Shown here: piece by piece, positions 1-63,134 of the stretch | How the letters are laid out: each line of letters starts with the position of its first letter | Position numbering within the stretch: the stretch's first letter is position 1 | DNA from: Microglena sp. YARC | Taxonomy: Eukaryota > Chlorophyta > Chlorophyceae > Chlamydomonadales > Chlamydomonadaceae | Length of the DNA: 64,000 nt | Assembly (NCBI GenBank): GCA_022414725.1 | Contig: CM039464.1 | Span: 61,727,313 to 61,791,312, forward strand | Direction of reading: 5' to 3' | Notes under the pieces: model-generated | Told to the model about the DNA's origin: nothing | The model's input: the letters and a program-made list of their open reading frames with translations, nothing else | Databases searched by the model: none | Translations under genes and position numbers: made by a program

Positions 1-50
1 AAACACACACACACCTACACAGACACACACACAGACACACACACACACAC

Positions 51-85
<35 letters not shown>

Positions 86-1304
86 CACCACACACACACA
101 CACTTACACACACACACACCTACACATACACACACGCACAGACACACACACACACCTACACACACACGCCTACACCTACACACTTACACACACACACCTA
201 CACATACACACACACAGAGACACACACACACCTACACACACACGCCCACACCTACACACCTACACACACCTACACACACAGACACACACACACACACACC
301 TACACACACACACACTCTCCGATCTTGCTGCCGACAAAGCGATTTTGTTTAGAGTAAAGATGGGATACGATTACAGCGGCGTCATCGCTCCTATCTTGCT
401 GGTGAGTCTTGCACACCTACACACACACACACACCTACACACACACACACCTACACACACACACACACACCTACACACACCTACACACACACACACACAC
501 ACACACTCTCCTATCTTGCTGCCGACGAAGCGATTTTGTTTAGAGTAAAGTAGGGATACGATTACAGCGGCGTCATCGCTCCTATCTTGCTGGTGAGTCT
601 TGCACACCTACACACACCTACACACACACACACACACACACACCTACACACACACGCCTACACCTACACACTTACACACACACACCTACACATACACACA
701 CACAGAGACACACACACACCTACACACACACGCCTACACCTACACACCTACACACACCTACACACACAGACACACACACACACACACCTACACACACACA
801 CACTCTCCTATCTTGCTGCCGACAAAGCGATTTTGTTTAGAGTAAAGATGGGATACGATTACAGCGGCGTCATCGCTCCTATCTTGCTGGTGAGTCTTGC
901 ACACCTACACACACACACACACACCTACACACACACACACCTACACACACACACACACACCTACACACACCTACACACACACACACACACACACACACTC
1001 TCCTATCTTGCTGCCGACGAAGCGATTTTGTTTAGAGTAAAGTAGGGATACGATTACAGCGGCGTCATCGCTCCTATCTTGCTGGTGAGTCTTGCACACC
1101 TACACACACCTACACACACACACACACACACACACACCTACACACACACACCTACACACACACACACACACACCTACACACACCTACACACACACACACA
1201 CACACACACTCTCCTATCTTGCTGCCGACAAAGCGATTTTGTTTAGAGTAAAGTAGGGATACGATTACAGCGGCGTCATCGCTCCTTTACTGCTGGTGAG
1301 TGGA
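1..1304 (+). repeat. CA-rich microsatellite with five repeated exon-donor blocks
   Basis: An ACACACCT-type repeat is interrupted by five near-identical blocks of about 85-90 bases. Each block begins CTCCTATCTTGCTGCCGAC and ends in an exon-like stretch followed by the consensus donor CTG|GTGAGT, with donors at about 402, 593, 890, 1085 and 1296. The blocks differ by a few substitutions or one-base indels. I read them as copies of one exon end plus its 5' splice site scattered through its own intron repeat. The exon belongs upstream in the gene whose later exons start at 4144. Frames through the CA repeats are open by chance and are not genes. Confidence 0.75.
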
Positions 1305-1380
1305 TGCTTGACTTGGTGGTGTGTGGTGTGGTGGTGTGTGGTGGGTGGTGTGTGGGGTGGTGGGTGGGTGTGGGTGTGTG

Positions 1381-1427
<47 letters not shown>

Positions 1428-1510
1428 GTATGTGTGTCATCTCTCCTAGAGTGCTGGTAAGTGGATGCTTGTCTTGGTGGTGTGGGTGGTGGGTGTGGGT
1501 GAGAGAGAGT

Positions 1511-1576
<66 letters not shown>

Positions 1577-1677
1577 GGGGGGGGGGGTATGTGTGTCATC
1601 TCTCCTATAGTGGCTGGTAAAGTGGATGCTTGTCTTGGTGGTGTGGGTGGTGGGTGTGGGTGTGAGAGAGTGGGGGT

Positions 1678-1715
<38 letters not shown>

Positions 1716-1795
1716 ATGTGTGTCATCGCTCCTATACTGCTGGTAAGTAGCTGGTGGTGTGTGGGTGTTGTCGTGGTGGCGGTGGTGGTGGTGTA
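1305..1795 (+). repeat. GT/G-run repeat with three more donor copies
   Basis: GTGTGG repeats and runs of up to about 35 G separate three more decayed copies of the same donor block (CTCCTA..TGCTG|GTAAGT) near 1441-1461, 1600-1620 and 1728-1748. The donor has changed from GTGAGT to GTAAGT but the block is recognisable. The strand asymmetry (C/A-rich before 1.3 kb, G/T-rich here) is abrupt. The G runs are prone to length errors. Confidence 0.65.
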
Positions 1796-2303
1796 CACAC
1801 ACAGGCACACACACAGGCACACACACATATGCACGCACTTACACACAAACACACACACACTAACACAAACACAAGCACAAACCGGTGTAGGCAGTAGACG
1901 CTTGCTCCCAGCGACCCTCAGAGCTGTGCAAACACACACAAACACGCACAAACACACACACACATAAACACACACACACACGAACAAACCCATGCAGGCA
2001 GTAAACGCTCGCTCCCTTCCCACCACTACCACCACCACCTCCGCCTCCACCACCACCACCACTACCATGCAATAGACACTGCTCCTTAGTTCACATACAC
2101 ACACACAAATATACACTCAGACACACGCACAAACACACGCAAACACACACACACATAAACAAACAAATCCATGCTGGCAGTAGACGCTCGCTCCCAGCGA
2201 CCCTCCGAGCTGTGTGTTGGAGGTGCTCCTGTGTATGACCAACATCTACTTTGACCACCACCACTAAACACCACCAACCACCAACATATAAACACAAACC
2301 ACC

Positions 2304-2335
<32 letters not shown>

Positions 2336-4143
2336 CAACGACGACAACCACCACTAACCTCCACCACCACACTAACAATCCCATGCAGGCAGTAGATGCT
2401 CGCTCCCTTCACACCACCACCACCACCACCAACCACCATCACCAACCACCATCACCAACCACCATCACCACCACCACAACCACAACCACAACCACAACCA
2501 CAACCACCAACCACCACCACCACCACAACAACAATCCCATGCATACAGTAGATGCTCGCTCCCTTCACACCACCACAACAACCACCACCACCAACCATTA
2601 TGACCACCACCACCACCACCACCAACCACCACCACCACCACAACAACAATCCCATGCAGGCAGTAGATGCTTGCTCCCTTCAGACCACCACCACCAGCAC
2701 CACCACCAACCATTATCACCACCACCACCACCACAACCAGAACCACCACAACCACCACCACCACAACCACCACCACCCACCACCACCACCACCACCACAA
2801 CAACAATCCCATGCAGGCAGTAGATGCTTGCTCCCTTCACACCACCACCACCACCACCACCACCACACTGACAATCCCATCTAGGCAGTAGATGCTTGCT
2901 CCCTTCACACCACCACCACCACCACAACCACCACCACCAACAACCACCACCAACGCCAACCACCACCAACACCAACCACCACCAACACAAACACAAACAC
3001 CACAACCACAACCACCACCACACTAACAATCCCATCCCACCACCACACTAACAATCCCATGCAGGCAGTAGATGCTCGCTCCCTTCACACCACCACAACC
3101 ACCACCAACCACCACCACCACCACCACCAACCACCACCACCACCACCACCACACTACCTATCCCATGCAGGCAGTAGACGCCCGCTCCCAGCTTCCCTTT
3201 GAGCTGTGCAAACATACACACACACCTACACACACACACACCCTACACACACACACACACCTACGCACACACACTCACACTTACACAAACAAACAAACCC
3301 ACGCAGGCAGCAGACGCCCGCTCCCAGCTTCCCTCCGAGCTGTGCACACACACACACACACACACACACACCTTATGAACTGAAGAGGACAAACGCACAC
3401 AATCAAACCCCATCCACAAACCCATGCAGGCAGTTGACGCCCGCCCCTGGCTGCCCTTTGAGCTGTGCAAACATACACACACAAGCACACACACACACAC
3501 ACAAACACACAACAAAAAAACCATCCACAAACCCTAACCACAAATCCTTGCAGGCAGTAGACGCCCGCTCCCAGCTCCCCTTCGAGCTGTGTGTGCTGGA
3601 GGTGCTCCTGTGTATGACCAACATCTACTTTGACCGCCGCCGCCAATCACCACCAACCACCACCACCACCACCACAAGCTCCTGCGTATGACCAACATCT
3701 ACTTCAAACCACCACCAACCACACCACCACCACCACCACAAGCTCCTGCGTATGACCAACATCTACTTCAACCACCACCAACCACCACCACCACCACCAC
3801 AAGCTCCTGCGTATGACCAACATCTACTTCAACCACCACCAACCACCACCACCAACCACCACAAGCTCCTGCGTATGACCAACATCTACTTCAACCACCA
3901 CCAACCACCACCACCACCACCACAAGCTCCTGCGTATGACCAACATCTACTTCAACCACCACCAACCACCACCACCACCACCACAAGCTCCTGCGTATGA
4001 CCAACATCTACTTCAACCACCACCAACCACCACCGACCACCACCACAAGCTCCTGCGTATGACCAACATCTACTTCAACCACCACCACCAACCACCACCA
4101 CCACCACCACCACCACCACCACCACACTTCCTATCCCATGCAG
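1796..4143 (+). repeat. CACCAC/ACAC intron repeat with many copies of the next exon's start
   Basis: CACCAC and ACAC microsatellite holds roughly a dozen copies of the 3' splice site and start of the exon at 4144. The core is CCATGCAG|GCAGTAGACGC followed by TCGCTCCC or CCGCTCCCAG. Copies lie near 1888, 1996, 2172, 2384, 2540, 2660, 2814, 2884, 3062, 3166, 3303, 3424 and 3551. Those near 2172 and 3551 extend through CTGGAGGTGCTCCTGTGTATGACC. From about 3660 to 4080 a further sub-repeat of 45-48 bases (GCTCCTGCGTATGACC plus a CACCAC tract) is tandemly repeated about eight times. The intron has been populated by fragments of its downstream exon. Confidence 0.75.
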
Positions 4144-4347
4144 GCAGTAGACGCCCGCTCCCAGCTTCCCTTCGAGCTGTGTGTGCTGGAGGTGCTCCTG
4201 TGTATGACCAACATCTACTTTGACCGTCGCATCGCCCATCTGACGTGGATGCTTGATCGCGTGTTGCACGATTTGCAAAGCAGCAATGAGCCCTTCTCCA
4301 CCGTCAGCAATGAAATGATGATCCAGCAGCTGGTGCCCCTTGAAAAG
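4144..4347 (+). CDS. MRS2/CorA-type Mg2+ transporter, soluble-domain exon
   Basis: A 68-codon, phase-0 exon with acceptor ATGCAG|GCAGTAG and donor GAAAAG|GTGCGC. It encodes LPFELCVLEVLLCMTNIYF near its start, closely matching the plant/algal MRS2 signature LPFEFRALE..L. Joined to the exon at 7335 it gives LVPLEK|VLTTVRHDAEE and then LLEDDEALASICLTE, equivalent to the family's LLDDDDDMADLYLT segment just before the variable loop. MRS2 proteins form pentameric Mg2+ channels of mitochondrial, plastid or other membranes; this region is the long-helix soluble domain. Intron lengths (over 2 kb upstream, 2987 bp downstream) are extreme. No mature start codon is visible in the window, so the protein is partial. 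Family assignment is from remembered motifs; I am fairly sure. Confidence 0.72.
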
Positions 4348-4475
4348 GTGCGCTGTGGACATGGTGGTGGTGGTGACTAACCATCTAACGAACGAACGAA
4401 CGAACGAACGAACGAACGAACGAACTAGCTAACTAACGAACGAACGAACGAACGAACGAACGAACGACGAACTAG

Positions 4476-4510
<35 letters not shown>

Positions 4511-5834
4511 GCTAGCTAACAAACTGACTAAATATTTGAAATATATAACAGCCTGGATAATTAATTTGGATTTACGAAATGTCCCTCCTGACTAAATATT
4601 TGAATTATAAAACAGCCTGGATAATTAATTTGAATTTACGAAATGTCCCTCCTGACTAAATATTTGAAATATATAACAGCCTGGATAAGTAATTTGAAAT
4701 TTACGAAATGTCCCTCCTGGCTTATGCAACCAGGTTCGAAATACTTTCCAACCAACCAGCCAACCAAGCAACTAATTAACTAACAGCCTGACTAAATATA
4801 TGAAATATATAGCAGCCTGACGAGATATTTGAAATTTACAAAATGTCCCTCCTGACTAATGCAACCAGATTCGAAGTACCGACCAACCAACCAACTAAAT
4901 AACTAACTGACTAATGTAACCAGGGTCTAAGTACTGACCAACCAACCAACTAAATAACAAACTGACTGACTAATGCAACCAGGTACTAAGTACCAACCAT
5001 CCAACCAACCAACCAACCAACCAACCAACCAACCAACCAACCAACCAACCTACCGATTAATGCAACCAAGTTCTAAATACTGACCAACCAACCAACCAAC
5101 TAACCAACCAACCAACCAACCAACTTACGAACAGACTGAAATATATGAAATATATAGAAGACTGACAAAATATTTGAAATTTATGAAATGAACCCATTGA
5201 CTAATGCAACCAGATTCGAAGTTCTGACCAACCAACCAACTAACTAACTAACTAACTAACTAACTAATTAACTGATTAATGCAACCAGGTTCTAAGTACC
5301 AACCGACCAACCAACCAACTAACTAAATAACTAACTAAATAACTAACTAAATAAATAAATGACTAATGCAACCAGAGTCGAAGTACTGACCAACCAACCA
5401 ACCAACCAACCAACTGATTAATGCGACCAGGTTCCAAGTATTGACCAACCAACCAACCAACCAACCAACCAACCAACCAACCAACCGACTGCTTAATGCA
5501 ATCAGGTTCTAACTACTGACCAACCAACCAACCAACCAACCAACCAACCATCCAACCAACCAACCAACCGACTGCTTAATGCAATCAGGTTCTAAGTACT
5601 GACCAACCAACCAACCAACCAACCAACCAACCAACCAACCAACTGCTTAATGCAATCAGGTTCTAAGTCCTGACCAACCAACCAACCAACCAACCAACTG
5701 ACCGACTAACTAACAGACTGAAATATATGAAATATATAGAAGACTGACAAAATATTTGAAATTTAGGAAATGAACCCATTGACTAAAGCAACCAGATTCG
5801 AAGTTCTGACCAACCAACCAACCAACTAACCAAC

Positions 5835-5884
<50 letters not shown>

Positions 5885-6255
5885 GCTAACTGACTAACTA
5901 GCTAACTGACTAACTGACTAACTGACTAATGCAACCAGGTTCTAAGTACCAACCAACCAACCAACTGATTAATGCAACCAGGTTCCAAGTACTGACCAAC
6001 TAACCAACCAACCAACCAACCAACCAACCAACCAACCAACCAACCAACCGACTGATTAATGCAACCAAGTTCTAAATACTGACCAACCAACCAACCAACC
6101 AACCAACCAGCCAACCAACCGACTATAACTAACAGACTGAAATATATGAAATATATAACAGACTGACAAAATATTTGAAATTTATGAAATGAACCCATTG
6201 ACTAATGCAACCAGATTCGAAGTACTGACCAACCAACCAACCAACTAACTCACTG

Positions 6256-6294
<39 letters not shown>

Positions 6295-7334
6295 GACTAA
6301 CTAACTAACTAACTAGCTAACTGACTAACTAACTTACTAGCTAACTGACTAACTAGCTAACTAACTAGCTAACTGACTAACTGACTAACTGACTAATGCA
6401 ACCAGGTTCTAAGTACCATCCAACCAACCCACCATCCAACTACCTACCTAACTAACTAACTGACTAATGCAACCAGAGGCGAAGTACTGACCAACCAAAC
6501 AACCAACCAACCAACTGATTAATGCAACCAGGTTCCAAGTACTGACCAACCAACCAACTAACTAACCAACCAACCAACCAACCAACCGACTGATTAATGC
6601 AACCAAGTTCTAAATACTGACCAACCAACCAACCAACCAACCAACCAACCAACCAACCAACCAACCAACCAACCAACCAACCGACTAACTAACAGACTGA
6701 AATATATGAAATATATAAAAGACTGACAAAATATTTGAAATTTATGAAATGTACCCATTGACTAGTGCAACCAGATTTGAAGTACTGACCAACTAACCAA
6801 CCAACCAACCAACTAACCAACTAACTAAGTAACCAACTAACGAACGAACAAACGAACGAACGAACTAGCTAACTAACTGACTAACTGACTAATGCAACCA
6901 GGTTCGAAGTACCAACCAACCAACCAACCAACCAACCAACCAACCAACCAACCAACCAACCAACCAACCAACCAACTAACTAACTAACAGACTAATGCAA
7001 CCAGATGTCTAAGTACTGACCAAGCCTCTTTCGGTGATATGCATTGGTCCAGTGATAGACTGAATCACTATAAGAATGAAGAGTCGGGGGTTCGACTCCC
7101 CCTTCGGTCGCTCTTGGCGTTGCAGGTCGTCGTCAACCGCGATGGTAGCTTGTCCAGTTGAGGTAGGAGACCGCTACCCACCCGCGTACGACAGGCTCCC
7201 TTAACACCACGCCCCACCAGGCGTTATCATTACCTTTTTTAAGTACTGACCAACCAACCAACCAACCAACCAACCAACCAACCAACCAACCAACCGACCA
7301 ACTAACTAACTGACTGACTGACTAATGCAACCAG
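4348..7334 (+). repeat. Intron of AACC/AACT/AACG repeats with about two dozen splice-acceptor-like units
   Basis: After the donor at 4348, (AACG)n and (AACT)n runs give way to a higher-order minisatellite. Its unit is GACTAATGCAACCAG, then GTTCTAAGTACTGACC, then (AACC)n, with spacing of about 50-140 bases. A second motif, AATATATGAAATATATA..GACTGACAAAATATTTG, recurs about every 500-1000 bases (4790, 5130, 5720, 6135, 6695). The true acceptor of the next exon is itself a copy of the unit: ACTAATGCAACCAG|GTG at 7334. A SINE interrupts it at 7024-7240. All ORFs here (for example Leu-Val-Gly-Trp repeats on the minus strand) are repeat artefacts. Confidence 0.8.
7024..7240 (+). mobile_element. tRNA-derived SINE, family A copy 1
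   Basis: A 217-bp non-repetitive island in the AACC array. Its head is tRNA-like: an A-box-like TGGTCCAGTGATAG near 7045 and a B-box GGTTCGACTCC near 7089. The body contains GCAGGTCGTCGTCAACCGCG and CTTGTCCAGTTGAGGTAG, and the end is TTATCATTACCTTTTTT. It is flanked by AAGTACTGACCAA at 7011-7023 and 7241-7253. That is what a target-site duplication would look like, although the target motif is itself repeated in the array. A second copy sharing body and tail is on the minus strand at 19718-19925. It is not a functional tRNA: no intact acceptor pairing is seen. Confidence 0.75.
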
Positions 7335-7483
7335 GTGCTCACCACGGTTAGGCATGATGCCGAGGAGACAGCTAGCGCCATCAACGACCTCTTGGAAGAT
7401 GATGAGGCGTTGGCAAGCATATGCTTGACTGAGGCTCGTAACTTGAGGGCTAGCAACAACCGCGACAGTTCAAACAGCTACAG
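7335..7483 (+). CDS. MRS2-like Mg2+ transporter, second recognisable exon
   Basis: Acceptor CAACCAG|GTGCTC and donor CTACAG|GTCAGT enclose 49 codons plus two bases, phase 0 in and phase 2 out. The product continues the coiled helical region (VLTTVRHDAEETASAINDL) into LLEDDEALASICLTEARN, the acidic MRS2 segment preceding the variable linker. It then runs into a Ser/Asn-rich stretch (SNNRDSSNSY). Three degraded duplicates of the exon's 3' half follow downstream, so which copy is spliced is unclear; this one is the only full-length intact copy. Placement in the same gene as the 4144 exon follows from matching phases and homology order. Confidence 0.7.
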
Positions 7484-8030
7484 GTCAGTCTCCTTCTCTC
7501 TCTTTCTCTCTCTCTCTCAGGTCAGGTTGGGGTTGGATGGGGGGGGGGGGGGGGAGGGGGGAGATGATGAGGCGTTGGCAAGCATATGCTGACTGAGGCT
7601 CGTAACTTGAGGGCTAGCAAACAACCGCGAACAGTTCGAACAGTTACAGGTCTGTTGGGGGGTTGGGGGGGGTCGGTGTTGCAGGTCTGATCCGGGGTGC
7701 GGTGGGTGGGGTGGGGAGAGGGGGAGGGGGTGCCAGGGGGGCGGATTTTGGGTGTGTGGGTGCAGGGCGTTGGCAAGCATCTGTTTGGACTGGGGCTCGT
7801 AACTTAAGGCTAGCAACAACCGAGACAGTTCATCAGCCAGTTACAGGTCAGTTGGGGGAAATGGGGTGGGTGGGTGGTGGGGGGGGGGGATTTGGTGTGG
7901 GTGCAGGGCGTTGGCAAGCATCTGTTTGACTGGGCTAGTTACTTGAGAGCTAGCAACAACCGAGGACAGTTCGAACAATTACATGTCCCAGGGAGGGCTG
8001 GGGGTCGGGGGGGGAGGGGAAGGGGATGTT
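7484..8030 (+). repeat. Three decayed duplicates of the preceding exon in G-rich spacer
   Basis: Copies of the exon's 3' half (GCGTTGGCAAGCATMTG..GCTCGTAACTTGAGGGCTAGC..ACAGTT) occur at about 7572-7650, 7768-7845 and 7908-7985. Each carries one or more frame-breaking indels and all but the last ends at ACAGGTC(A/T)G, a retained donor. Spacers are GGGGTG-type. The middle two copies begin with TGCAGGGCG, an acceptor-like junction. Confidence 0.75.
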
Positions 8031-8042
8031 TGACTCATCATT

Positions 8043-8080
<38 letters not shown>

Positions 8081-8708
8081 TCATCATCATCTATCATCAT
8101 CATCAATCATCATCATCATCCTCATCCTCATCGTCATGGCATCGTCATCATCATCATCATCATCATCTTCTTCTTCACCATCATAATCATCACCACCATC
8201 AGCATCCTCATCATCATCACCACGACCATCACCTCCACCATCACCATCACCATCACCATCACCACCACCACCACCACCATCACCATCATCACCACCATCA
8301 TCACCACCATCATCATCACCACCATCACCACCATCACCATCACCATCACCACCGTCACCATCACCATCACCATCACCACCACCATTATCCACCATCAGGA
8401 TCACCACATCAGCATCACCACCAGCCACCAGCATCAAATCATTACCACCAGCCACCATCATCATAACCATCATCACCACCAGCACCACCTCCACCATCAA
8501 CTATCATTGCTGCCATCATCATCATCATCATCATCTCATAGCGCCCATTTTGTTCTTCTGTTGTGCAAGCAACAGCTACGGCAACAACATCATGATCGGA
8601 ATCACCACCATCAGCATCACCATCATCAGCAACCACCATCAGCACCAACCACAAGCATCATCATCGTCATCATCACACTATCATCATCATCATCTCACAA
8701 ACGCGAAA

Positions 8709-8767
<59 letters not shown>

Positions 8768-9475
8768 CCACCACCACCACCACCACCAGCATCAGTATCA
8801 TCTCATAGCGCCTATTGTGTTCTTCTGTTGTGCAGGCAGTGGCAGCAAAGCAAGCAACGCCAACAACAGCATGATCGGCATCACCACTATCAGCATCACC
8901 ATCATCAGCGCCACCATCATCACCACCACCACCACCAGCATCATCAGTATCATCTCATGGTGCCCATTGTGTTCTTCTGTTGTGCAGGCAGTGGCAGCAA
9001 AGCAAGCAACGCCAACAACAGCATGATCGGCATCACCACCACAATCACCATCAGCATCACCACCATCAGCATCACCACTACCTCCATCAGCATCATCACC
9101 ATCAGCATCACCAGCATCACCACCACCACCAGCATCATCAGTATCATCTCATAGCGCCCATTGTGTTCTTCTGTTGTGCAGGCAGTGGCAGCAAAGCAAG
9201 CAACGACAACAGCAGCATGCTCAGCATCACCACCACAATCACCATCAGCATCACCACCATCAGCATCATCACCACCACCACCACCACCATCAGAATCATC
9301 TCATGGTGCCCATTGTTTTCTTCTGTTGTGCAGGCAGTGGCAGCAAAGCAAGCAACGGCATGAACGGCATCAGCACCATCAGCATCACCACCATCACACC
9401 ACCGACCATCACACCACCACCACCAGCAGCATCAGTATCATCTCATGGCGCCCTTTGTGTTCTTCTGTTGTGCAG
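8031..9475 (+). repeat. ATC/CAC microsatellite intron with six acceptor copies
   Basis: Long ATC, CAT and CAC tracts are punctuated by copies of TGTTCTTCTGTTGTGCAG|GCAGTGGCAGCAAAGCAAGC at about 8549, 8819, 8970, 9165, 9317 and 9460. The first copy reads GCAAGCAACAG instead. Each copy keeps a pyrimidine tract, the AG acceptor and the first 30-40 bases of an exon coding AVAAKQAT. The period is about 150-200 bases. Poly-His, poly-Ser and poly-Ile frames are artefacts of the ATC repeat. Confidence 0.78.
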
Positions 9476-10235
9476 GCAGTGGCAGCTAAGCAAGCAACGG
9501 CAACAGCAGCACGATCAGCCAGCAGCAACAGACCAACAACAGGACTGGGTCAGCAGAATCAGCAGCAGAATCAGCAAGCAGCAGCCGCACCAGCAGCAGC
9601 AGCAGCAACCCAAGACCAAACAACAGGACTGGAGAAAGCAAAATCAGCCAGCAGCAGCAGCCAGCCGCACCAGCAGCAGCAACCCCTCCAGCAGCAGCAG
9701 CAGCAAAACAGCAGGCAACAACCCCAGCAGCAGCAGCAGCAGCAACAACCCCAACAAACCCCAGCAGAAAGCAGCAGCAGCAGCAGCCCCCCCCCCCACG
9801 CCTTGCAAACAAACCCACTCACGCAAACCCGCCCACACACTCCTACAACCCCTACCACACCCCCACCTATAAACCCACACACCTCAAACAGCCCATTCAC
9901 CCCGGCGTGACCGCTCTCAAAAGCCTCAAAATCGGCGGCGTAGGCGCTGTCAAGCATCTCAAGCTTGCCAACGCAGTATTGGGGCCGCGGGCCCGGGAGG
10001 CCGCCCAGGCCCCCCCCCAGGGGGGGGGGGCCGCCCGGTACCCGGGCGGAGGCGGAGGCAGCGGGGAGGGCGGAGGGCCGATCCCGAGTATCGAATGCGT
10101 GCACGAGCGGGGGCTTGGTGGTGGTGAACAGCTGCCCGCTGCCGCCCCCTCGCGCAGCACCAAGGCCCATAACCTTTCTGGAGACCCTATGAGAGAGAGA
10201 TTTGAGAGCTCCAGCTTTAGCTTGGTTGAGGAGTG
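9476..10235 (+). CDS. Gln/Ala/Ser-rich and GC-rich exon of the same transcription unit (uncertain)
   Basis: After the last acceptor (GTGCAG|GCAGTGGCAGC) the sequence stays open for about 430 bases as AVAAKQATATAARSASS followed by poly-Gln/Ala/Ser and a Pro/Thr-rich tail. From 9905 the +1-shifted frame reads TALKSLKIGGVGAVKHLKL, then a Gly/Ala/Pro-rich stretch, then the first copy of the ETYEREIESF-type block near 10177. GC content peaks at 9980-10160. MRS2 proteins have a variable low-complexity linker at this position, so this could be that linker. The frame change at about 9905 means either an unseen intron or an indel. I cannot prove expression. Confidence 0.35.
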
Positions 10236-12470: not shown

Positions 12471-13599
12471 CATAGATGGAGATTGGTTCACCAATTGGAA
12501 GGAACCTGTACCTCAAACTGTACCTACCTGTACCTCAAAATTACTTAACCTGTACTTCAAACTGTACCTTCCGATGGCCCTTAACCTGTACCTCAAAACT
12601 TGATACCCTAACCTGTTTCTTCAAACTGTACCTCCGCATGGCCCTAACCTGTACCTCGAAACGGTTGTAACCTAATGTCTCCCTGATTCTTTCCCTGCTC
12701 CACCCTTCACACGCATGGTTCACACTTATCCAACATTTCAAAGCCACCTGCGAACAGACGGTTGTTGTTATATACCTAACCTCCTAGCTATGATTTGGTG
12801 ATTCCTTCCATGGTTTAAACACTCTGGCCTACAGCCCATACTTCCGACTCCATGGCCCAACCTGTATCCTCAAACTGTTACCTAAATGTCTGACCTTCTT
12901 TCGTCACTTATCAGTCCATGGTCCATCCATATCCTATCCATCCAGTTGGCGCACCCTCCTACCCTCACCTGTACCTTCTACCAAACGTGGTTCCAACGCT
13001 CCTGCATGATGGAATGGAATCCCATCTTGGACGCAAACCTGTACTCAAACCTGTACATTCACAATGCCCAACTGCACCTCCACAATGTCAACGTTTGCAT
13101 GTAGGTGGAGATGGAATCCCACTTGGACGCAACCTGTACCTCAACCTGTACATCACAATGGCCCTAACCTGCACCTCACAATGTCCAACGTTGCATGTAG
13201 GTGGAGATGGAATCCCACTTGGACGCAACCTGTACCTCAACCCTGAATACAATCACAATGGCCCTAACCTGCCACCTCACAATGTCCAACGTTGCAGTAG
13301 GTGGAGATGGAATCCCACTATGGACCAACCGTGTACTCAACCTGTACATCACAATGGCCCAACCTGCCACCTCACAATTGTCCAACGTGCATTAGGTGGA
13401 GATGGATCCCACTTGGCATGCGACCGGAGAGAGGACGTGGGCGCATAAAGTTGACACTGCACGCAACCACTTTATGGCTAGCTCAACCTCTACCTCAGCC
13501 ATGGCCAACTTCATGATCACCAAGCTGTTTCCTCCTTCTCCCATTCATATTCAAATTTCAAATGCATATATTTCCAACCATTTTGTCTTTCACGTGTAG
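12471..13599 (+). repeat. CCTGTACCTCAAA-type repeat with VEMESHLDAT exon-start copies
   Basis: Units of CCTGTACCTCAAACTGTACC and ATGGCCCTAACCTGTACCTC occupy about 12500-13060. From 13080 a period of about 100 bases appears, with acceptor-like GTTGCATGTAG|GTGGAGATGGAATCCCACTTGGACGC near 13100, 13200, 13300 and 13395. Each copy restarts an exon coding VEMESHLDAT. The last runs on to RERTWAHKVDTARNHFM, which fits the MRS2 segment just before the first membrane helix. No intact single reading frame covers all copies. Confidence 0.65.
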
Positions 13600-13775
13600 G
13601 TGAGAATGGAAGTCCCACTGATGCAACCAGAGAGAACGTCGGCGCATGAAGTTGGACAATGCACGCCAATCACTTCATGCTGCTTCAACCTCTACCTCAC
13701 CATGGCCTCCGTGAGCTTTCATGTCACCACCTTGCTGCCCGCCTTCTATGGCAGAACATCGAGCATGGCATGGAG
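13600..13775 (+). CDS. MRS2-like GMN-motif exon, first copy (frame-damaged)
   Basis: Acceptor-like CACGTGTAG|GTGAGAATGG precedes sequence coding an LNLYLTMASVSFHVTTLLP membrane segment and then FYG. Later copies of the same block continue FYGMNMEHGME. MRS2/CorA channels are defined by a GMN triplet at the pore end of the first transmembrane helix, so LYLTM..TTLLPAFYGMNMEH is a good match in position and character. In this copy MN is lost (GGCAGAACATC in place of GGCATGAACATG) and another indel sits upstream, so it may be a non-functional shard or contain assembly errors. Confidence 0.5.
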
Positions 13776-14900
13776 GCGGAGTCAAACCTACTTCAACCAC
13801 CATTTTGATCGGAAGCATTGCTGCGATTGGCTAGCTTCCCCGCTGCCTTCCACTGTACCGCAGGGGTGCAGTACAAGGGTGTGTGTGGGAGGGGAGGTGA
13901 GGGGGGGAAAGAGAGAGAGAGAGAGAGAGAAGAGAAGATGAAGAGAGATGAAGGCAGATCAAACCTACTTCAACACCATTTTGATCGAAGCATTGCTGCG
14001 CGATTGGCTAGCTTCCCCGCTGCCTTTCCACTGGTACCGCAGGTAGTGGCATACAAGGGTGTGTGTGGGGGGGGAGGCTGATGCGGTGATTGTGTGTGTG
14101 TGTGTGTGGCGGGGGGGGGGTAATGGGTGCGTGATGGAAGTTTAGTTACCGGATTGCTTGCTTGTACCACCCCTACTGCCCGCCTTCTATGCATGACATG
14201 GAGCAGCATGAGCGATGTGGCTTGGCTTGGCACCACTCGTGCGCCGGCCTGTCTATGGCATAAACATGGAGGCATAAGCATGGAGCGATTCTTTGGCTTG
14301 GCACCATCTCTGCTGCCCGCCTTCTATGGCAATGAACATGAGCATGCATGGAGCGGATTGCTTGCTTGGCCACCACTCTGCTGCTCGCCTTTCTATGGCC
14401 ATGAACAGAAAATAGAAAAATTTTAGAACATCCAAGTTATCACATGCCGGGGACAGTTTAACCTACAAGGACGTGGTTTTTACGACACCGTCGTAGCTCA
14501 CCTTAGCTCGAGGTTGTCAATGCAGGCTAGAACCAGTCACGTTCATATGTGTTGACGGCCACCTGAGAACCCCGAGAACGCTCCCGACGGGTTCGAACCC
14601 GCATCTCCCTTCGATTCAAGGTCGGATTACGTCTACCATGAGCCACTCCGAGTCCGGATCGTGGGATATCGGCTATGAACATGGAGCATGGCATGAGCGG
14701 ATTCCGCTTGCTTGGCACCACTCTGCTGCCCGCCTTCTAGGGCATGCACATGGAGCATGGCATGGAGGCGGATTGGATTGGCTTGGCACCACTCTGCTGC
14801 CCGCCTTCTAGGGCATGCACATGGAGCATGCATGGAGGCGATTGGCTTGGCTTGCACCACTCTGCTGCCTGTCTTTCTATGCATGGACATCGACCTTGAG
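13776..14900 (+). repeat. Tandem copies of the GMN-coding exon edge
   Basis: Copies of TGCTGCCCGCCTTCTATGGC, then ATGAACATGGAGCATGGC, then GGATTGGCTTGGCACCACTC recur near 14178, 14250, 14322, 14390, 14735, 14798 and 14870. The spacing is about 65-75 bases outside the interruptions. Many carry one-base losses. Between 13860 and 14130 there are two larger units containing TGATCGGAAGCATTGCTGCG and GTGTGTGGGGGGG. A SINE-like insertion at about 14419-14670 splits the array. Confidence 0.65.
14419..14670 (-). mobile_element. tRNA-derived SINE, family B
   Basis: On the minus strand this reads CGGAGTGGCTCATGGTAGACG (A-box region) and GCGGGTTCGAACCCGTCGGG (perfect B-box with T-arm stem), followed by about 130 bases of unrelated body. 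It interrupts the GMN-exon array cleanly, and the array resumes at 14671. The T-arm is intact but the sequence upstream does not fold convincingly into a whole tRNA with a 3' acceptor match. I call it a tRNA-derived SINE rather than a tRNA gene. The body differs from family A. Confidence 0.55.
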
Positions 14901-14924
14901 TTGGGCAGCGAAACACTAGTACAA

Positions 14925-15640
14925 ACCCTAAACCCTAAACCCCTTGCAGGATTGGACAAAGACCTTCACACTGACTTTGCGCAAGCACGTAGCACAAACC
15001 TAACCCTTTAAACCCCCGCAGGCATGCGGCTAAAACCTCCAGCACTGAGTTTGCAAGCACTAGCACAAACCATAAGACCCTAATGCTAAACCCTAACGCT
15101 CAGGCATTATGAAGACCCCAGCACCGAGTTGGGGAAGCACTAGCACAAACCCTACACCCCTAAAACCCCTCCGCGACCGAGTTGGGAAGCACTAGCACAA
15201 AACCCTACACGCCTAAACCTAAACCCTAAACTGCTTTGCAGGCATGCTTGAAGACCTCAAGACCGAGATTGAGGCGAGCACCAGCAAACAACCCTAACCC
15301 TTAAACTAACCCTCAACGCTTGGCAGGCATTGGATGAAGACCCTCCAAGCACGAGTTGCGAGCACTAGCACAAAACCCGTACACCCTAAACCGCTTGCAG
15401 GCATTGGCCTGAAGACCTCCAGCACGAGTTGGGCGAGCACTAGCACGAACCCTGAACCCTAAACCCAAACCCTAAAACCGCCTCAATGACACCCTTTAAA
15501 ACGCTAAACCTCTTGCAGGCATTGGATGAAAAAACTTCCAGCACCGAGTTGGCAATGTCCATATTAAACCCTAAACCCCTAACCCCAAACCGCCACAATG
15601 ACACCCCTAAACCCTTAAACCGCTTGTAGGCATGATTGAA
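14925..15640 (+). repeat. Telomere-like CCCTAAA repeats alternating with acceptor/exon-start copies
   Basis: About nine units of roughly 80-100 bases. Each has (AAACCCTA)n, then GCTTGCAG|GCATTGGATGAAGACC, then TCCAGCACCGAGTTGGGC and AGCACTAGCAC. The CCCTAAA motif matches the plant/green-algal telomere type but is interstitial, degenerate and interleaved with an exon start coding ALDEDLQHRVG. The intron repeat here has telomere-like sequence; it is not a chromosome end, because coding exons and other introns continue on both sides. Confidence 0.72.
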
Positions 15641-17300
15641 AACCTCCAGCACCGAGTTGGCAAGGTTCCATGTTAAGTTGTTTTGGTTGGCAACATATGG
15701 ATCACTGGACACATATGGCATGGCCTGCGTCGCATACGAGTACGTGCTCATGTCACTCATGTATCTATCTATATATATCCATTCATTCATTCATCCACCC
15801 ATCCACCCATCCACCCATCCACCAAGTCGCCCCGTTGGTGGTCCAACACATGGATCACTTGGATGACATCTTGCATGGCGCTGCCGCTCGCTACGATACC
15901 GTGCTTCATGTCACTCCATTATCTATATATACCATTCATTCATTGCATTCCACCCATCCACCCTCCCACCCGCCACCATCCACCCAGCCCATGTTGGTGG
16001 TGGAGCAACACCATGGAAATCACTTGGATGACATCTTGATGGCCATGCCGTCGCATTACAGGTACGTGCTTCATGTCACTCATGCATCGATCAGATGTAT
16101 TCCATGCATCTATCCATTCATCCACCCATCCTCCCACCCATCTCCACCCATCCTCCCATCCACCCAAGTGCGCCCCTTGGTGGTTCAACACATGGATCAC
16201 TTGGACGACATATTGATGGCCTGCCGTCGCATACAGGTACTGCTTCATGCACTCATTATCTATATTTATCCATCATTTCATTCATCCACCCATCCACCCT
16301 CCCACCCACCACCCATCCACCCACCATGTTGAGGTTGTTGGTGGCGCAACACATGGATCACTCCGACGATATCGATGGCCTCCTCCCATACAAGGGCGTG
16401 CTTCATGTCACTTCTGTATCTATATTACATTTTCATTAATGTATCCATCATCCACCCATACAAATCAGTTGCTTCATTTACACTCATTTCCTCTATATCC
16501 ATCATCGTCCATTTACCCACCCATACACCCACCCATTCATTCGTTCATACAACCCACCCATCATTCGTCCGATTTAACCCACCCATGCACCCACCCATTC
16601 ATTCGTCCATACACCCAGCCCATTCATTCTCCATTTACCCACCTTACACCCACCTATTCATTCGTCCATACACCCACCCATTTACACCCACCCATTCATT
16701 CGTCCCATGCCACCCACCCATTCATTCGTCCATACACCCACCATACACCCACCCATACACCCACCCTTACACTTCACCCATACACCCACCCATACACCCA
16801 CCCATACACCCACCCTTACACCCACCCATACACCCACCCATACCACCCACCCATACACCCACCATACACCCACCCATGCACCACCCTTTACACCCACCCA
16901 ATACACCCACTCAACAACCCACCCATACCACCACCCATACACCCACCCATTACACCCACCCATACAACCCACCATACACCACCCATGCACCCACCATACA
17001 CCCACCCATACACCCACCATTACCAACCTCCCATACACCCACCCATACACCCACCCAATACACCCACATACACCCACCCATACACCTACCCAGTTACACC
17101 TACCCATACAACCCACCCTTACACCCACCCATACACCCACCCATACACCCACCCATACATCCACCCATTACACCCACCCATACACCCACCCATAACACCC
17201 ACCCATACACCCAACCCATACACCACCCACCCACCCCGCCGTTGGTGTCCACACTTTGATCATTTAGATACATCTTGATTCCTGCTGTCGCATTTACGAC
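15641..17300 (+). repeat. CATCCACC repeat intron with copies of an HMDHLDDILMACRRI exon
   Basis: Five or six copies of CACATGGATCACTTGGATGAC followed by ATCTTGATGGCCTGCCGTCGC and a donor (ATACAG|GTACGTGC) occur near 15710, 15850, 16015, 16190, 16355 and 17255. They code VVQHMDHLDDILMACRRIQ. Upstream of each is CGCCCCTTGGTGGT; downstream is a CATTCATCCACCCATC repeat that expands to a 700-bp CATACACCCACC tract at 16480-17230. The encoded short amphipathic helix is not one I recognise. It may belong to the transporter's C-terminal region or to a separate downstream gene. Confidence 0.62.
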
Positions 17301-18109
17301 GTACGCTGCTCATGTCCACTCATAGCATTCAATGTATATTCAACTTATTATCATCTATCCACCCAACCCATCATCCTTCCATCCATCCACCTACCCAACC
17401 CACCCACCCAGTACTTCATACACTCATTTGTCAAAATATATTTCAATCATTTCTCCAATTCATCCATTCATCCATCGTCTATTTATCCATTCATCCTTCC
17501 CACCCCATTATCTACCACATATATTACCCACCCGACCCACACCAAAACACGTTATCCCACCCACCCTTCAGGCAAAGTGTATAGAAGACCTTCTGGCCCA
17601 AAGCTGCGTCGTAACTAGCGTCTCAACATCAGCCACCCACCCACCCACGCTATTCTTACCACAAACCCAACCACCTATGTACCCACACCCACCCACCTAT
17701 CTACCAACCCACCCACCCTTCAGGCAAAGTGGATGAAGAAGACCGTTGTGCCCAAGCTCGCCGTAACCTGTCGTTCGATCAACATCCAGCCACCCACCCA
17801 CCCACCTATCTACCTCTGCCCACATATATAACCACACACCCAAGCACCCCAAGCACACCACCTATCTACCCACCCAACCACCTATTACCCAACACCCACC
17901 TATCTACCCACCCAACCACCTATGTACCCACACCACATCTACCAACCCACCCACCCTTCAGCAAAGTGGATGAGAAGACCTTCTGTGCCCCGTTCGTTCG
18001 TAACCTGTCGTCCGTCAACATCGAGCCCCACAACACACAACCTATTACCCTCCTGCACAAAATAACCCCCACACACAGCACCCCCCTACCCATCCACCCA
18101 CCCTTCAGG
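17301..18109 (+). repeat. CCACCTAC-type repeat with four KVDEKTFCAQVRRNLSS exon-start copies
   Basis: CACCCACCTATCTACC repeats carry copies of CACCCTTCAG|GCAAAGTGGATGA followed by GAAGACC and a CGTAACCTGTCGTC block near 17568, 17720, 17957 and 18107. They code KVDEKTFCAQVRRNLSSIN, with the first copies diverged. The acceptor (pyrimidine tract, TTCAG) is preserved in each copy. The last copy leads into the terminal exon. Confidence 0.65.
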
Positions 18110-18363
18110 GCAAAAGTGGATGAGAAAGACTTTCTGTGCCCAGGTTCGTCGTAACCTGTCGTCCATCAACAATCAGCTTGGATGAAGCCCTGCTGAAATC
18201 CTCTTCCACAATTTTGACAGCTAACAAGACGGCTTTTCGAGGCGCTGAATCATCGAAGAACCACACGTCCTTAGACGTCCTAGGTCGCGTGCCGTCCAAG
18301 AAGCGGAAGCGTCCGTCTCACTTTAACGAGCTGCATAAGGATGAGGGTTCCAGACCACGTTAG
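18110..18363 (+). CDS. Terminal exon of an unidentified gene, basic C-terminus
   Basis: Following the last TTCAG acceptor, an open frame runs through SLDEALLKSSSTILTANKTAF and ends with VPSKKRKRPSHFNELHKDEG and a TAG stop at about 18361. The KKRKRP patch resembles a monopartite nuclear localisation signal, which does not fit an MRS2 C-terminus well. The exons from 15 kb onward may therefore belong to a different gene. A one-base indel separates the RRNLSSIN frame from the SLDEALL frame. I do not recognise the product. Confidence 0.4.
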
Positions 18364-19031: not shown

Positions 19032-19224
19032 CAGAATACTTCCATTGACCAAATTGGCCAGCGCTTTAGCGCACTTGAAAAAAAACAAAACTGCGCTCTG
19101 TAGTGCGAAAAGCGCACACATGCTTCTGCGACCCACAGGGGTTGAAAAAAACTGCGCAAAAACGCGCAGTGGGGCTCAAATAAGGCAACGCGCCAGCGCG
19201 CCTAAGCGCCGCTTGAAATACCTG
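19032..19224. mobile_element. hAT-like MITE (family CAGGGTACTT), short copy
   Basis: This 193-bp element has diverged ends CAGAATACTTCCATTGACC and, inverted at the other end, CAGGTATTTCAAG. The interior is rich in GCGC and AGCGCT palindromes (AAATTGGCCAGCGCTTTAGC). It is flanked by CCTGTAG at 19025-19031 and 19225-19231 (7 bp, possibly 8). Better preserved relatives sit at 41955-43486 and 57871-58033, with ends CAGGGTACTT..AAGTACCCTG. Terminal CAGGG and a duplication of about 8 bp are hAT superfamily traits. There is no coding capacity. Confidence 0.65.
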
Positions 19225-19244
19225 CCTGTAGCAGTAGCTTCACG

Positions 19245-19700
19245 TCACCAGAAGCAGTTCATTATATAGATTATAGCTGATTATGGATGGTAAAAACCCC
19301 TGTAATAATAATGCGTTACTGGTGCTGGTACTTGTGAAACGTGGAGCAGTTCATTATTATAATTATAGCTGATTATGGATAGTAAAACCTGTTAATAAAA
19401 GCGTACTGCGTTGCTGGTACTGTGAAACGTGGAAGCCAGTCATTTATTATAGATATAGCTATTATGGATAGTATAAACCTTTAAAATAATGCGTACTGTA
19501 TAGTACTTGTGAAACGTGAGCAGTTCATTTATTATAGATTATAGCTGATATGGATACCGAGTAAAACGCCTGTTAATAATAATGCGTAACTGTGATAGTA
19601 CTGGTGAAAACCTGAAGCAGTTAATTTATTATAGATTATAGCTGTTATAGAAGTAATTAGTAAAACCTCTTAATAATAATCTGTACTGGTGCTGTATATA
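19245..19700 (+). repeat. Tandem repeat of about 95 bp, five units
   Basis: Units read AGCAGTTCATTATTATAGAT, then TATAGCTGATTATGGATAGT, then AAAACC..TTAATAATAATGCGT and ACTGGTGCTGGTACTTGTGA. About five copies carry frequent one-base indels. AT-rich and non-coding. Confidence 0.7.
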
Positions 19701-19717
19701 AGCCGCAACATTAGCCA

Positions 19718-19925
19718 AGTAATGATAACGGGCCTGTGGGCCTTATAAGGACCGCTCGTAACTCGGCTAGAGAGCGTACTTCTACCTCAACTGGACAAGC
19801 TATCAATCGCGGTTTAACGACGACCTGCACATTCAGGGCGCCGTAGGGAATCGAAACTCCCGACCCTGCATCCTCAAACGATTTGGGCCCACTAGATACT
19901 AGACCAATTGATTTGCTGAAAAGGG
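19718..19925 (-). mobile_element. tRNA-derived SINE, family A copy 2
   Basis: Read on the minus strand this shares body and tail with the element at 7024-7240: TTGTCCAGTTGAGGTAG, TGCAGGTCGTCGT and the terminal GTTATCATTAC. The head is a tRNA-like segment with an A-box-like TTGGTCTAGTATCTAGTGGG and B-box-like GAGTTTCGATTCCC. The two heads are more diverged than the bodies. The 3' end lies at the lower coordinate. A target duplication is not obvious. Confidence 0.65.
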
Positions 19926-20049
19926 GCTATAGCAGAGATAGCATTGCAGAGCCAACGCGAACTTGGTTACATAGAACTCCACCAGCAATTAGCTGCTCGC
20001 CGTCTTAAGCAGTAAAAAAAGTTACCAGGAAAATGTAAACGCAAAACAA

Positions 20050-20310
20050 ACCACTTTATTACGACACCTGCAATCAAGCCCTTCCAGGCTTGTATGCAGC
20101 TGCTTACAAGCCTGGCAACGAAGATCACGACAGCCTGCAATCAAGCCCTCCTTGATTTTGTGGCAGTGCTTCCAGCCTGCAACAAGTCACGACAGCCGGC
20201 AAATCAAGCCCCCCTATTGTGCGCAGGCTTATAGCCGCAATGAAGTCACGACAGCCTGGCAATCAACCTCCCAGATGTGGTGCAGTGCTTATAGCTTGCA
20301 ATTGAAGTCG
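20050..20310 (+). repeat. Tandem repeat of about 65 bp, four units
   Basis: Units read ACGACAGCCTGCAATCAAGCC followed by CTCC..GTGCAGTGCTTATAGCCTGC. Four diverged copies are seen. No gene is apparent between the SINE and this array. Confidence 0.6.
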
Positions 20311-20349
20311 CGCAAAAGGCTAACTGCTCATCGGTCTCAGGTGACTTCT

Positions 20350-20720
20350 GCAAATGTTATACAATACAAATACGGTTATTAAAACAATAAAATAAATACA
20401 GCGCGGAATACAGAACTAAACAATACAAACCAAAATACAGTCAATAACAAATAAACCAACAAAATACGCAGTTCCTAAAATAAATAAAGACAAAATACAG
20501 GCTAATACAAAAGTAAACACTGATACAGGTTACTGACAAACAAAGCTGAAAATACCGTATTAAAAAATAAAACACTAACTAACTCGCAAAATAAAGGTAC
20601 TAAAAAATAAACACGAACATTAAAGGTTACTGAAAAATAAACATAACATAAAGGTTGTTAAAAAATTAACACCAAAATTCAGTTACTAAAAAAATTAATA
20701 CAAAATATACAGTTTCTGTA
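20350..20720 (+). repeat. A-rich tandem repeat (AAAATACAGTTACTAAAAAATAAAC)
   Basis: About ten irregular units of 28-38 bases containing AAAATACAG..TTACTAAAAAATAAACAC. AT-rich and non-coding. Confidence 0.6.
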
Positions 20721-20859
20721 GCACCCGAAGATTGCTATATTTTTGACCAAGACAAGCCTGCCCACAAATTAAGATACAGGTGCAACCAAGATCAGGCATG
20801 CTACAAGCAGCGAAAAGTGCTGAAAAGCTTGGTAGATGTTTATTGTGGGGGTGTTTGGG

Positions 20860-21259
20860 TGGGGGTGGTAGTGTGTAGGGCGTGTATCCAAAAAACCCAA
20901 GGCTTTCCCATTAAAAAGGAGGCGTGGAGGAAAAACAAGTGTGATGTTGAACGTTGTGGTGTGGTTATGGGGTTTAGTGTGTGGGTGTGTTAGGGGGTTG
21001 GCGGGCGGGGGGGCGTGAGAGTGTAGGGGGTGTATCTAAACCCAAGCTTCCCAGTAACAGGTAGGCGTGGAGAAAAAACAAAGCGGTACTTGTCGTGGTG
21101 TGGTGTGGGGTTTTATTTTGGGTGTGGTGTGGTTAGGGCGGGGATGAGTGGGGGCTTGTACCAAACCCAAGCTGCCAAAGTAAAAAGAGGTATCGCGGAG
21201 AAAAAACAATGTGTGTTGTTTGTGGGGGTTGGTTTTGGTGTGTTGTGGGGTCAGAGTGT

Positions 21260-21291
<32 letters not shown>

Positions 21292-21544
21292 GGGGGGGGG
21301 GGAGGAATTAAGTGTGGGTAATGGTTGTGGGTGTGGTGGGCTCAAACCACCAAGCCCTATACAGGTTGATTGTGAGGAAACAAGAGTTTGTTTTGTGGTG
21401 AGGTGTTTGTGTGTGGGGGTTCAGAGTGTGGGTGTGTGTGTGTCGTTGGTTTAAGTGTGTGGGTTGGGCCTTGGTGGTTGGTGCTCAACACAGCCCTATA
21501 CAGGCAGATGAGAAACAAGTGCAACTGAAACAATCTCTCTCTTT
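20860..21544 (+). repeat. GTGTGGGGGT repeat with five exon-start copies, running into the gap
   Basis: Five units of about 130-150 bases combine a G/T-rich spacer (GGGTGTGGTGTGG..) with an exon-edge block: CCAAACCCAAGCTKCCAG, then GCAGAT or GTAGGCG, then GAGAAACAA. Copies lie near 20890, 21035, 21160, 21345 and 21487. The last two carry the clearest acceptor, CCCTATACAG|GCAGATGAGAAACAAG. This is the same layout as the 1-18 kb introns, so another gene with such introns probably continues into the gap. Confidence 0.6.

Positions 21545-56227: not shown

Positions 56228-63134
<6,907 letters not shown>

What the first reader, a model, noticed from the sequence alone, without database searches (positions are those of the whole stretch)
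1..21544. Every intron is a different microsatellite seeded with decayed copies of its own exon edge and splice site
In at least ten successive introns the spacer repeat differs (CA, CACCAC, AACC, ATC, GGTGGGTGAGTG, CCTGTACC, CCCTAAA, CATCCACC, CCACCTAC, GTGTGG). In each, 3-13 copies of the adjacent exon's first or last 20-80 bases, with the functional AG or GT, are spread through the repeat. This is too systematic for random duplication. It suggests a recurrent process, such as slippage or break repair that copies exon edge plus repeat as one unit. One consequence would be many competing splice sites. I know of no named class of element that behaves this way.
Basis: partly seen in the sequence, partly recalled or inferred. 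Interest (0 to 1): 0.88.

Follow-up and report, generated by a model that had tools for sequence, protein, structure and literature searches.

The report
Introns full of exon-edge copies
In what is probably the salt-loving green alga Dunaliella, most predicted introns of a likely magnesium-transporter gene hold tandem copies of the neighbouring exon edges; the pattern matches "mirage" repeats already named in lancelets and likely arises by ordinary tandem duplication.

Summary
The MRS2-like gene has 7 predicted exons and 6 introns, not ten or more; an intron can carry two arrays, one at each end. With uniform 42-nt probes, 9 of 11 predicted edges have 3-13 further copies in their own intron; a lipase gene beyond the assembly gap has them at 2 of 7 edges. 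The 18 probes gave 1 hit in the stretch searched beyond the gap. A third, LRR-like gene on the minus strand has one extra acceptor copy with 5 bp of microhomology. Part of the "decay" after about 7.5 kb is indel noise (median 11% in arrays against 1% elsewhere), probably uncorrected long reads; clean copies differ by substitutions, so the duplications are real. A named class exists: "mirages", minisatellite-like duplications of exon-intron boundaries in amphioxus. Likely mechanism: tandem duplication across one splice junction, silent in the mRNA if the outermost site is used, then repeat turnover. Splicing and copy-number instability are untested. A striking new member of a known kind; the listings of ten paper searches showed no green-algal case.

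The parts
320..1301 (+). five copies of an 88-nt unit that holds predicted exon X1 with its GT donor, in a CA/CTACAC repeat; three of the five read TAG in the frame that I take for coding (a guess), two read ATG there
   Evidence: (94-100% identity), alignment, higher-order period 488 bp
1429..1751 (+). three extra copies of the X1 donor edge in a GT/G-rich repeat
1879..3640 (+). 14 extra copies of the X2 acceptor edge in CA and CAC repeats; 11 of 14 keep AG; of the 12 that were aligned all end in the exon at position 19, 38 or 82-87
   Evidence: 14 copies; 12 aligned; 13 pass the uniform probe
3644..4107 (+). seven identical copies of a 29-nt X2 interior piece (positions about 51-77) in a 61-bp CAC minisatellite (no splice site)
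4144..4347 (+). predicted exon X2 of the MRS2-like gene (last acceptor copy, the only one followed by the full exon)
   Evidence: X2+X3 peptide hits PF22099 MRS2-like, 36.3 bits against cut-off 27; open frame across X2|X3
4857..7004 (+). 19 copies of TAATGCAA(C/T)CA(A/G), the intron side of the X3 acceptor, in an AACC/AACT repeat; 16 keep CAG; no exon sequence copied
   Evidence: negative
7335..7483 (+). predicted exon X3
7566..7989 (+). three extra copies of the X3 donor edge in G-rich repeats, with indel noise
8513..9401 (+). five extra copies of the X4 acceptor edge in an ATC/CAC repeat, four of them with about 60 nt intron + 43 nt or more of exon, the first shorter; clean sequence
9476..10224 (+). 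predicted exon X4 (Q-rich linker, then ..GGAGACC..TATGAGAG..)
   Evidence: open frame 9490-10335; edges
10326..11492 (+). four extra copies of the X4 donor edge in a GGTG repeat, noisy
12465..13425 (+). up to six extra copies of the X5 acceptor edge in a CCTGTACC repeat, noisy (three pass the uniform probe)
13600..13860 (+). predicted exon X5 with a GMN-like stretch, recognised by eye; donor not defined
   Evidence: sequence read; no Pfam hit for a hand-made consensus peptide
14152..14893 (+). seven copies of an X5 interior segment in the downstream intron, split by an insert near 14410-14670
   Evidence: E7 probe, 8 hits with the exon's own
14937..15555 (+). seven extra copies of the X6 acceptor edge in a CCCTAAA repeat, noisy
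15629..15740 (+). predicted exon X6, with its own edge copies on both sides
15835..17323 (+). five extra copies of the X6 donor edge in a CATCCACC repeat, noisy
17560..18026 (+). three extra copies of the X7 acceptor edge in a CCACCTAC repeat, noisy
18109..18360 (+). predicted last exon X7
   Evidence: open frame 18124-18360
48277..48439 (-). LRR-like gene: predicted acceptor edge and first 43 exon bases present twice (first exon bases at 48322 and 48402), CACTA shared at the junction
   Evidence: LRR matches are below Pfam cut-off
57612..58184 (+). old, decayed copy of the lipase exon-2 acceptor edge plus about 146 nt of exon, split by an insert with a 14-bp target-site duplication
59819..60169 (+). 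lipase exon-3 donor edge and two extra copies (about 41-43 nt exon + 47-68 nt intron) in an AAC-rich intron, no indels in the aligned 76 nt
   Evidence: gene: PF01764 Lipase_3, 74.3 bits, relative P0004

Best explanation
These are minisatellites whose repeat unit spans a predicted exon-intron junction (the structure called "mirage" in amphioxus), and they likely arose by repeated local tandem duplication in a very repeat-rich algal genome. Shown: tandem copies of exon edges at 9 of 11 probed edges of one predicted gene and 2 of 7 of another; in the X2 array, discrete truncation classes with adjacent copies more alike; a two-copy case in a third gene with 5 bp of microhomology. Inferred: a duplication that covers one splice junction leaves the mRNA unchanged when the outermost site (first donor, last acceptor) is used, so it escapes selection, whereas duplications inside exons or across whole exons are removed; simple repeats at intron ends would provide the microhomology and the room for later slippage or unequal exchange, so each array takes up its own local simple repeat as spacer. 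Predicted, untested: splicing uses the outermost sites, and array lengths vary between strains.
For: Edge probes: 11 of 18 predicted edges with copies in their own intron, 1 hit beyond the gap for all 18. Truncation classes in X2 at exon positions 19, 38 and 82-87, plus the 51-77 piece, suggest several independent events, each then amplified. Adjacent X2 copies are more alike than in permuted order (mean edit distance 4.9 against 5.9, p = 0.018; one array tested). The LRR-like case has two copies 80 bp apart and a shared CACTA. Copies in the four clean families diverge by substitution or not at all, with 0 indels, and one lipase copy carries an insert with a 14-bp TSD, so they are old genomic sequence. 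On which site is used, indirect support only: X2+X3 joined give one MRS2-like domain across the last of 20 similar acceptor motifs, and relative P0004 runs across the lipase exon 1|2 join at the last acceptor copy. The genome sample is 29% repeat of period 15 or more. In Chlamydomonas and Volvox tandem repeats concentrate near intron-exon junctions (PMC3887541, 12 of 29 passages). Same structure named in amphioxus (PMC3087553 passages; PMC3902484 passage).
Against: No RNA evidence, so exon edges and used sites are predictions; that extra copies lie on the intron side is partly by construction, because I took the outermost copy as the exon's own. P0004 ends exactly at the lipase exon-3 edge and the Pfam match ends about there too, so neither tests the intron-3 donor. 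No significant gradient of divergence with distance from the exon in X2 (rho 0.40, p = 0.16). X1 is duplicated as a whole unit with its donor, which an outermost-site rule alone does not explain. X2 donor, X3 acceptor and 5 of 7 lipase edges have no copies. The phosphatase exon in sampled locus L013 has none nearby, though that screen (blastn, E 1e-5) would miss short or old copies. Copy numbers in the noisy half cannot be trusted to the unit.
Confidence: 0.83

Rival explanations
1. Assembly or sequencing artefact: the extra copies were created by gap filling or by noisy long reads, and the real introns are short.
For: Arrays in the zone 10,170-21,544 show 11% median indels against 1% elsewhere; the gene lies next to a 1,000-N gap; a Dunaliella salina assembly of matching size was built from PacBio reads and corrected with Illumina (PMC11140103 passages). 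The seven identical E2_mid units could be miscounted by an assembler.
Against: The pattern is also in sequence without indels between copies (X1, X4 acceptor, lipase intron 3) and in the X2 array, lipase intron 1 and the minus-strand LRR-like gene, on both sides of the gap; copies there differ by substitutions and one is split by an insert with a TSD, which an assembler does not invent.
Confidence: 0.07
2. The copies are kept by selection as decoy splice sites or decoy exons that control intron retention or splice-site choice.
For: Most copies in the two sets counted keep the dinucleotide: 11 of 14 in X2, 16 of 19 of the X3 acceptor motif.
Against: No test showed that the dinucleotides are kept better than other bases; there are exon-interior copies without any splice site; no RNA data.
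Confidence: 0.05
3. A dedicated element or copying process that takes exon edge plus splice site as its unit, unlike ordinary tandem duplication.
For: High share of affected edges in one gene (9 of 11).
Against: Each edge probe with copies hits its own intron, with 1 hit beyond the gap for all 18, so no shared element was seen; unit ends differ between copies of one edge; an intron-only duplication (lipase intron 2) and exon-interior arrays occur too; the toy model gives 32-84% junction-spanning for introns of 200-300 bp.
Confidence: 0.05

Closest known systems
Mirage minisatellites of amphioxus (Adh3, globin BflGb6/BflGb9, similar repeats in PGBD5; PMC3087553 and PMC3902484, passages read; the original 2002 Adh paper is not held)
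   Same: Tandem repeats that span an exon-intron boundary, at donor or acceptor; many but not all units with AG/GT; turnover like other minisatellites.
   Different: A green alga instead of a lancelet; 9 of 11 probed edges of one gene are affected; spacers are microsatellites that differ per array. There RT-PCR suggested undisturbed splicing and length differences between haplotypes were seen; neither was testable here.
Intron gain by tandem duplication (Rogers model; potato RdRp case, PMC4974935, passages read)
   Same: A duplication that crosses an intron-exon boundary; the copied splice signals can be used.
   Different: There one duplication made a new intron; here existing introns grow and no new intron is shown.
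Tandem repeats near intron ends in Chlamydomonas and Volvox (PMC3887541, passages read)
   Same: Tandem repeats enriched in green-algal introns, towards the junctions, with GT/AC motifs.
   Different: That study counts repeats and, in the passages I saw, does not describe copies of exon sequence in them.

Membership tests
mirage minisatellite | tandem repeat whose unit spans an exon-intron boundary | tested here: met
   11 of 18 predicted edges; boundaries are predicted, with Pfam or homology support for X2|X3 and lipase exons 1|2
mirage minisatellite | minisatellite-like unit length (10-72 bp in Adh3, 150-160 bp in globins, as quoted in PMC3087553) | tested here: met
   TRF periods of the arrays that bear edges lie mostly between 61 and 196 bp, one higher-order period of 488 bp; LRR-like case 80 bp
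mirage minisatellite | many but not all copies keep AG/GT | tested here: met
   11 of 14 in X2; other junction-spanning arrays not counted
mirage minisatellite | local homogenisation of units | tested here: met
   adjacent X2 copies more alike, p = 0.018; one array tested
mirage minisatellite | regular splicing of the mRNA is not disturbed | not testable with these tools
   no RNA reads available
mirage minisatellite | length instability between haplotypes or somatic cells | not testable with these tools
   one assembly only; the genome search on it did not complete
introner-like or other mobile intron element | shared element sequence at many sites | tested here: not met
   within this window: 1 hit beyond the gap for 18 edge probes; not tested in the rest of the genome
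intron gain by tandem duplication | a new intron created from the duplicate | not tested
   needs orthologues from related species

The most novel reading that the evidence does not exclude
In this alga intron growth by capture of its own exon edges is a genome-wide regime: introns are built by serial junction-spanning duplications, and the spliceosome reliably picks the outermost of up to a dozen near-identical sites, making every such intron a natural test of how splice sites are chosen and of how introns expand.
Probability: 0.3. Interest if true: 0.75.

Novelty: new member of a known kind. Interest (0 to 1): 0.5.

Why it matters
In the passages and listings I saw, mirages are reported only from amphioxus. 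Their presence in three predicted genes of a 64-kb algal stretch suggests that a genome with frequent tandem duplication and short ancestral introns may produce them readily. The arrays offer natural series of near-identical splice sites in a row, which would make first-donor/last-acceptor choice and exon definition directly testable, and they show a simple route for intron growth. They also warn annotators: gene finders and homology searches in such genomes could place false exons in these copies.

Tried and rejected
Rejected: chance similarity (reversed-sequence and minus-strand controls empty; one hit beyond the gap). Rejected as sole cause: assembly artefact (families without indels). Rejected: ten separate introns (gene model). 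Not supported: divergence gradient with distance from the exon (rho 0.40, p = 0.16). Led nowhere: ARAGORN and Rfam (gathering threshold) on the window, 0 hits each; protein search with the X2 read-through frame, 4 candidates, none significant; PDB search with the X2+X3 peptide, 0 hits; X5 as read matched only a sub-threshold family (E 0.1) and its hand-made consensus none; lipase exon 1 alone matched none. Pfam on 130 ORFs of the sampled loci gave 13 families; the one ordinary gene exon that I could place and use was the phosphatase in L013; the RCC1 gene was placed but its edges were not tested, and the thioredoxin and AAA matches were not placed (20 ORFs tried). The genome-wide rate of affected edges therefore remains unknown.

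Limits of my counts: the 13 probes were chosen by eye after seeing the repeats, and several are consensus-like; one search is the less biased count but rests on my predicted edges, and searched only the own intron and one stretch beyond the gap; X5 donor and X1 acceptor could not be defined and were not probed. The clean and noisy zones were drawn after reading the sequence; clean arrays range 0-12% indels, noisy ones 5-16%. In the noisy families substitutions outnumber indels (320 to 144); some of these may be shifted bases in the alignment, some real divergence. X2 copy 2070 is so diverged that it drops out, and it and 2885 were not among the 12 aligned. Paper searches: I saw listings, often capped (15 of 21, 15 of 256, 10 of 34, 10 of 11).

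Full report
What is in the window. The window looks like nuclear DNA of a green alga, GC about 0.5 overall (0.34-0.61 per 2 kb), with a 1,000-N gap at 21545-22544. The own assembly has six large contigs of 194.9, 94.8, 63.2, 57.6, 46.0 and 18.6 Mb (about 475 Mb together) and at least 94 more contigs; the ten of these whose length I saw are under 0.25 Mb, and none was added to the sum. That is close to the 472 Mb published for Dunaliella salina FACHB435, for which the paper names PacBio, Illumina and Hi-C (PMC11140103, passages). The GC is near the 49.1% of D. salina CCAP19/18 (PMC5658486, whole text).

The gene. The peptide of predicted exons X2 and X3 hits the Pfam family MRS2-like (PF22099, 36.3 bits, cut-off 27) and the exon join is open in one frame. 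I predict seven exons and six introns: X1 to 1295, X2 4144-4347, X3 7335-7483, X4 9476-10224, X5 from about 13600, X6 about 15629-15740, X7 about 18109-18360. Edges in the noisy half may be off by a few bases. X5 was recognised by eye from a GMN-like stretch; a consensus peptide found no Pfam family, so its place in an MRS2 protein rests on recall. That X1 and X4-X7 belong to the same gene is likewise inferred.

The copies. Uniform probes of 30 nt of exon plus 12 nt of intron were taken at 18 predicted edges and sought in the own intron at up to 33% edits. Nine of 11 MRS2-like edges have extra copies: X1 donor 3, X2 acceptor 13, X3 donor 3, X4 acceptor 5, X4 donor 4, X5 acceptor 3, X6 acceptor 7, X6 donor 5, X7 acceptor 3. 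X2 donor and X3 acceptor have none; at X3 only a 12-nt intron-side motif is repeated, 19 times, 16 with CAG. Two of seven lipase edges have copies (1 and 2). In the stretch searched beyond the gap the 18 probes gave one hit. Thirteen hand-picked probes gave 84 plus-strand hits (own copies included, five places under two probes), 81 beside their own exon, none on the minus strand and none in the reversed window. I took the outermost copy as the exon's own: for X2 it is the only one followed by the full exon, for X3 and lipase exon 2 domain or homology supports it; elsewhere this is a choice, so that the copies lie on the intron side is partly by construction. Exceptions are the whole-unit copies of X1, and copies of exon interiors, E2_mid x7 and E7 x7.

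Other genes. A class-3 lipase gene (PF01764, 74.3 bits; relative P0004, 133 of 248 positions identical with the joined exons) has two extra copies of the exon-3 donor edge in an AAC-rich intron, and one old copy of the exon-2 acceptor edge plus about 146 nt of exon (73.6 and 85.5% identity in two pieces) split by an insert with a 14-bp target-site duplication. P0004 crosses the exon 1|2 join but ends at the exon-3 edge. The old copy has no microsatellite around it: TRF finds none in lipase intron 1. On the minus strand an LRR-like gene (LRR matches below Pfam cut-off) has its predicted acceptor and first 43 exon bases twice, 80 bp apart. There the exon ..CCTCACTA|GCTTG and the intron ..CCCACTA|ACTACC share CACTA at the point of fusion, read directly.

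Noise versus decay. In four families (X1, E2_mid, X4 acceptor, lipase) 1,146 aligned bases hold 0 indels; E2_acc has 4 inserted columns in 297 bases that reflect longer copies; the seven families E3 and E5-E10 hold 144 indels and 320 substitutions in 2,395 bases. TRF arrays of period 15 or more have a median of 1% indels in clean zones (41 arrays, range 0-12) and 11% in the noisy zone (21 arrays, range 5-16), Mann-Whitney p = 1e-8; the zones were drawn after reading. I take this as uncorrected long-read consensus (inference), so 'decayed' should not be read simply as age there, though substitutions outnumber indels and some divergence will be real; unit counts there are approximate. Noise is not the cause of the pattern, which is just as clear in clean sequence.

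How it arose. In X2 the 12 aligned copies end at only a few exon positions (19, 38, 82-87), and a 51-77 piece is repeated beside them, which speaks for several independent duplications, each amplified. Adjacent X2 copies are more alike than in random order (p = 0.018), but divergence does not significantly rise with distance from the exon (rho 0.40, p = 0.16). A duplication that covers one junction is silent in the mRNA if the outermost site is used. In a toy model with introns of 200-300 bp, 32-84% of such silent duplications of 60-150 bp span a junction, against 4-9% for 3-kb introns, so the pattern would be set up while introns were short; that they were short is an assumption. The background is rich in repeats: in 19 sampled 10-kb stretches 34% is TRF repeat and 29% has period 15 or more (several stretches are contig ends or small contigs, so this is not an even sample). 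The only Pfam-confirmed ordinary exon there that I checked, a dual-specificity phosphatase in L013, has no local copies at blastn E 1e-5, so the pattern is probably not universal.

What is known. Tandem repeats that span an exon-intron boundary are called mirages in amphioxus; they occur at donor and acceptor, many but not all units keep AG/GT, they turn over like other minisatellites, and the data there suggest that regular splicing goes on (PMC3087553 passages; PMC3902484 passage). The first description (Adh, 2002) is not held. Intron-end enrichment of tandem repeats is reported for Chlamydomonas and Volvox (PMC3887541 passages). The listings of my ten paper searches (several capped) showed no green-algal mirage; the library is open-licence papers only.

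Verdict. I file it as a mirage-type minisatellite by structure: four defining features tested and met (two of them on one array only), two (splicing undisturbed, length instability) not testable here.

Noticed in passing
7011-7253: SINE-like insert in the AACC intron, flanked by the 13-bp direct repeat AAGTACTGACCAA; 7073-7233 is 73.7% identical to the reverse strand of 19719-19874.
   Followed up: partly
14410-14670: Another insert, with a GGTTCGAACCC stretch like a tRNA box (by eye), that splits the X5-interior array.
   Followed up: no
57851-58118: Insert with a 14-bp target-site duplication (TACCCCATTCCCTT); its parts resemble 32179-32264, 41955-42065 and the reverse strand of 19093-19237.
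   Followed up: partly
26150-32030: Retrotransposon, LINE-like by eye; the frame 28884-31652 has an RNase H domain (67 bits) and matches unnamed metagenome proteins at 75-97% identity over 25-59% of its length. No reverse-transcriptase domain was found by Pfam in the two upstream frames tried.
   Followed up: partly
56828-56907: 80-bp hairpin (90% self-complementary), MITE-like, in lipase intron 1.
   Followed up: no
39443-40567 and 48858-50326: Four very regular minisatellites (24-53 bp units, 95-98% match, 0% indels); no exon edges seen by eye, not probed; the 24-bp one keeps a reading frame.
   Followed up: no
59421-59648: Intron-only duplication in lipase intron 2 that stops 7 nt before the exon.
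   Followed up: partly
320-1301: Of five X1 copies two read ATG and three TAG at the same place, so in the frame that I take for coding only two would stay open.
   Followed up: partly
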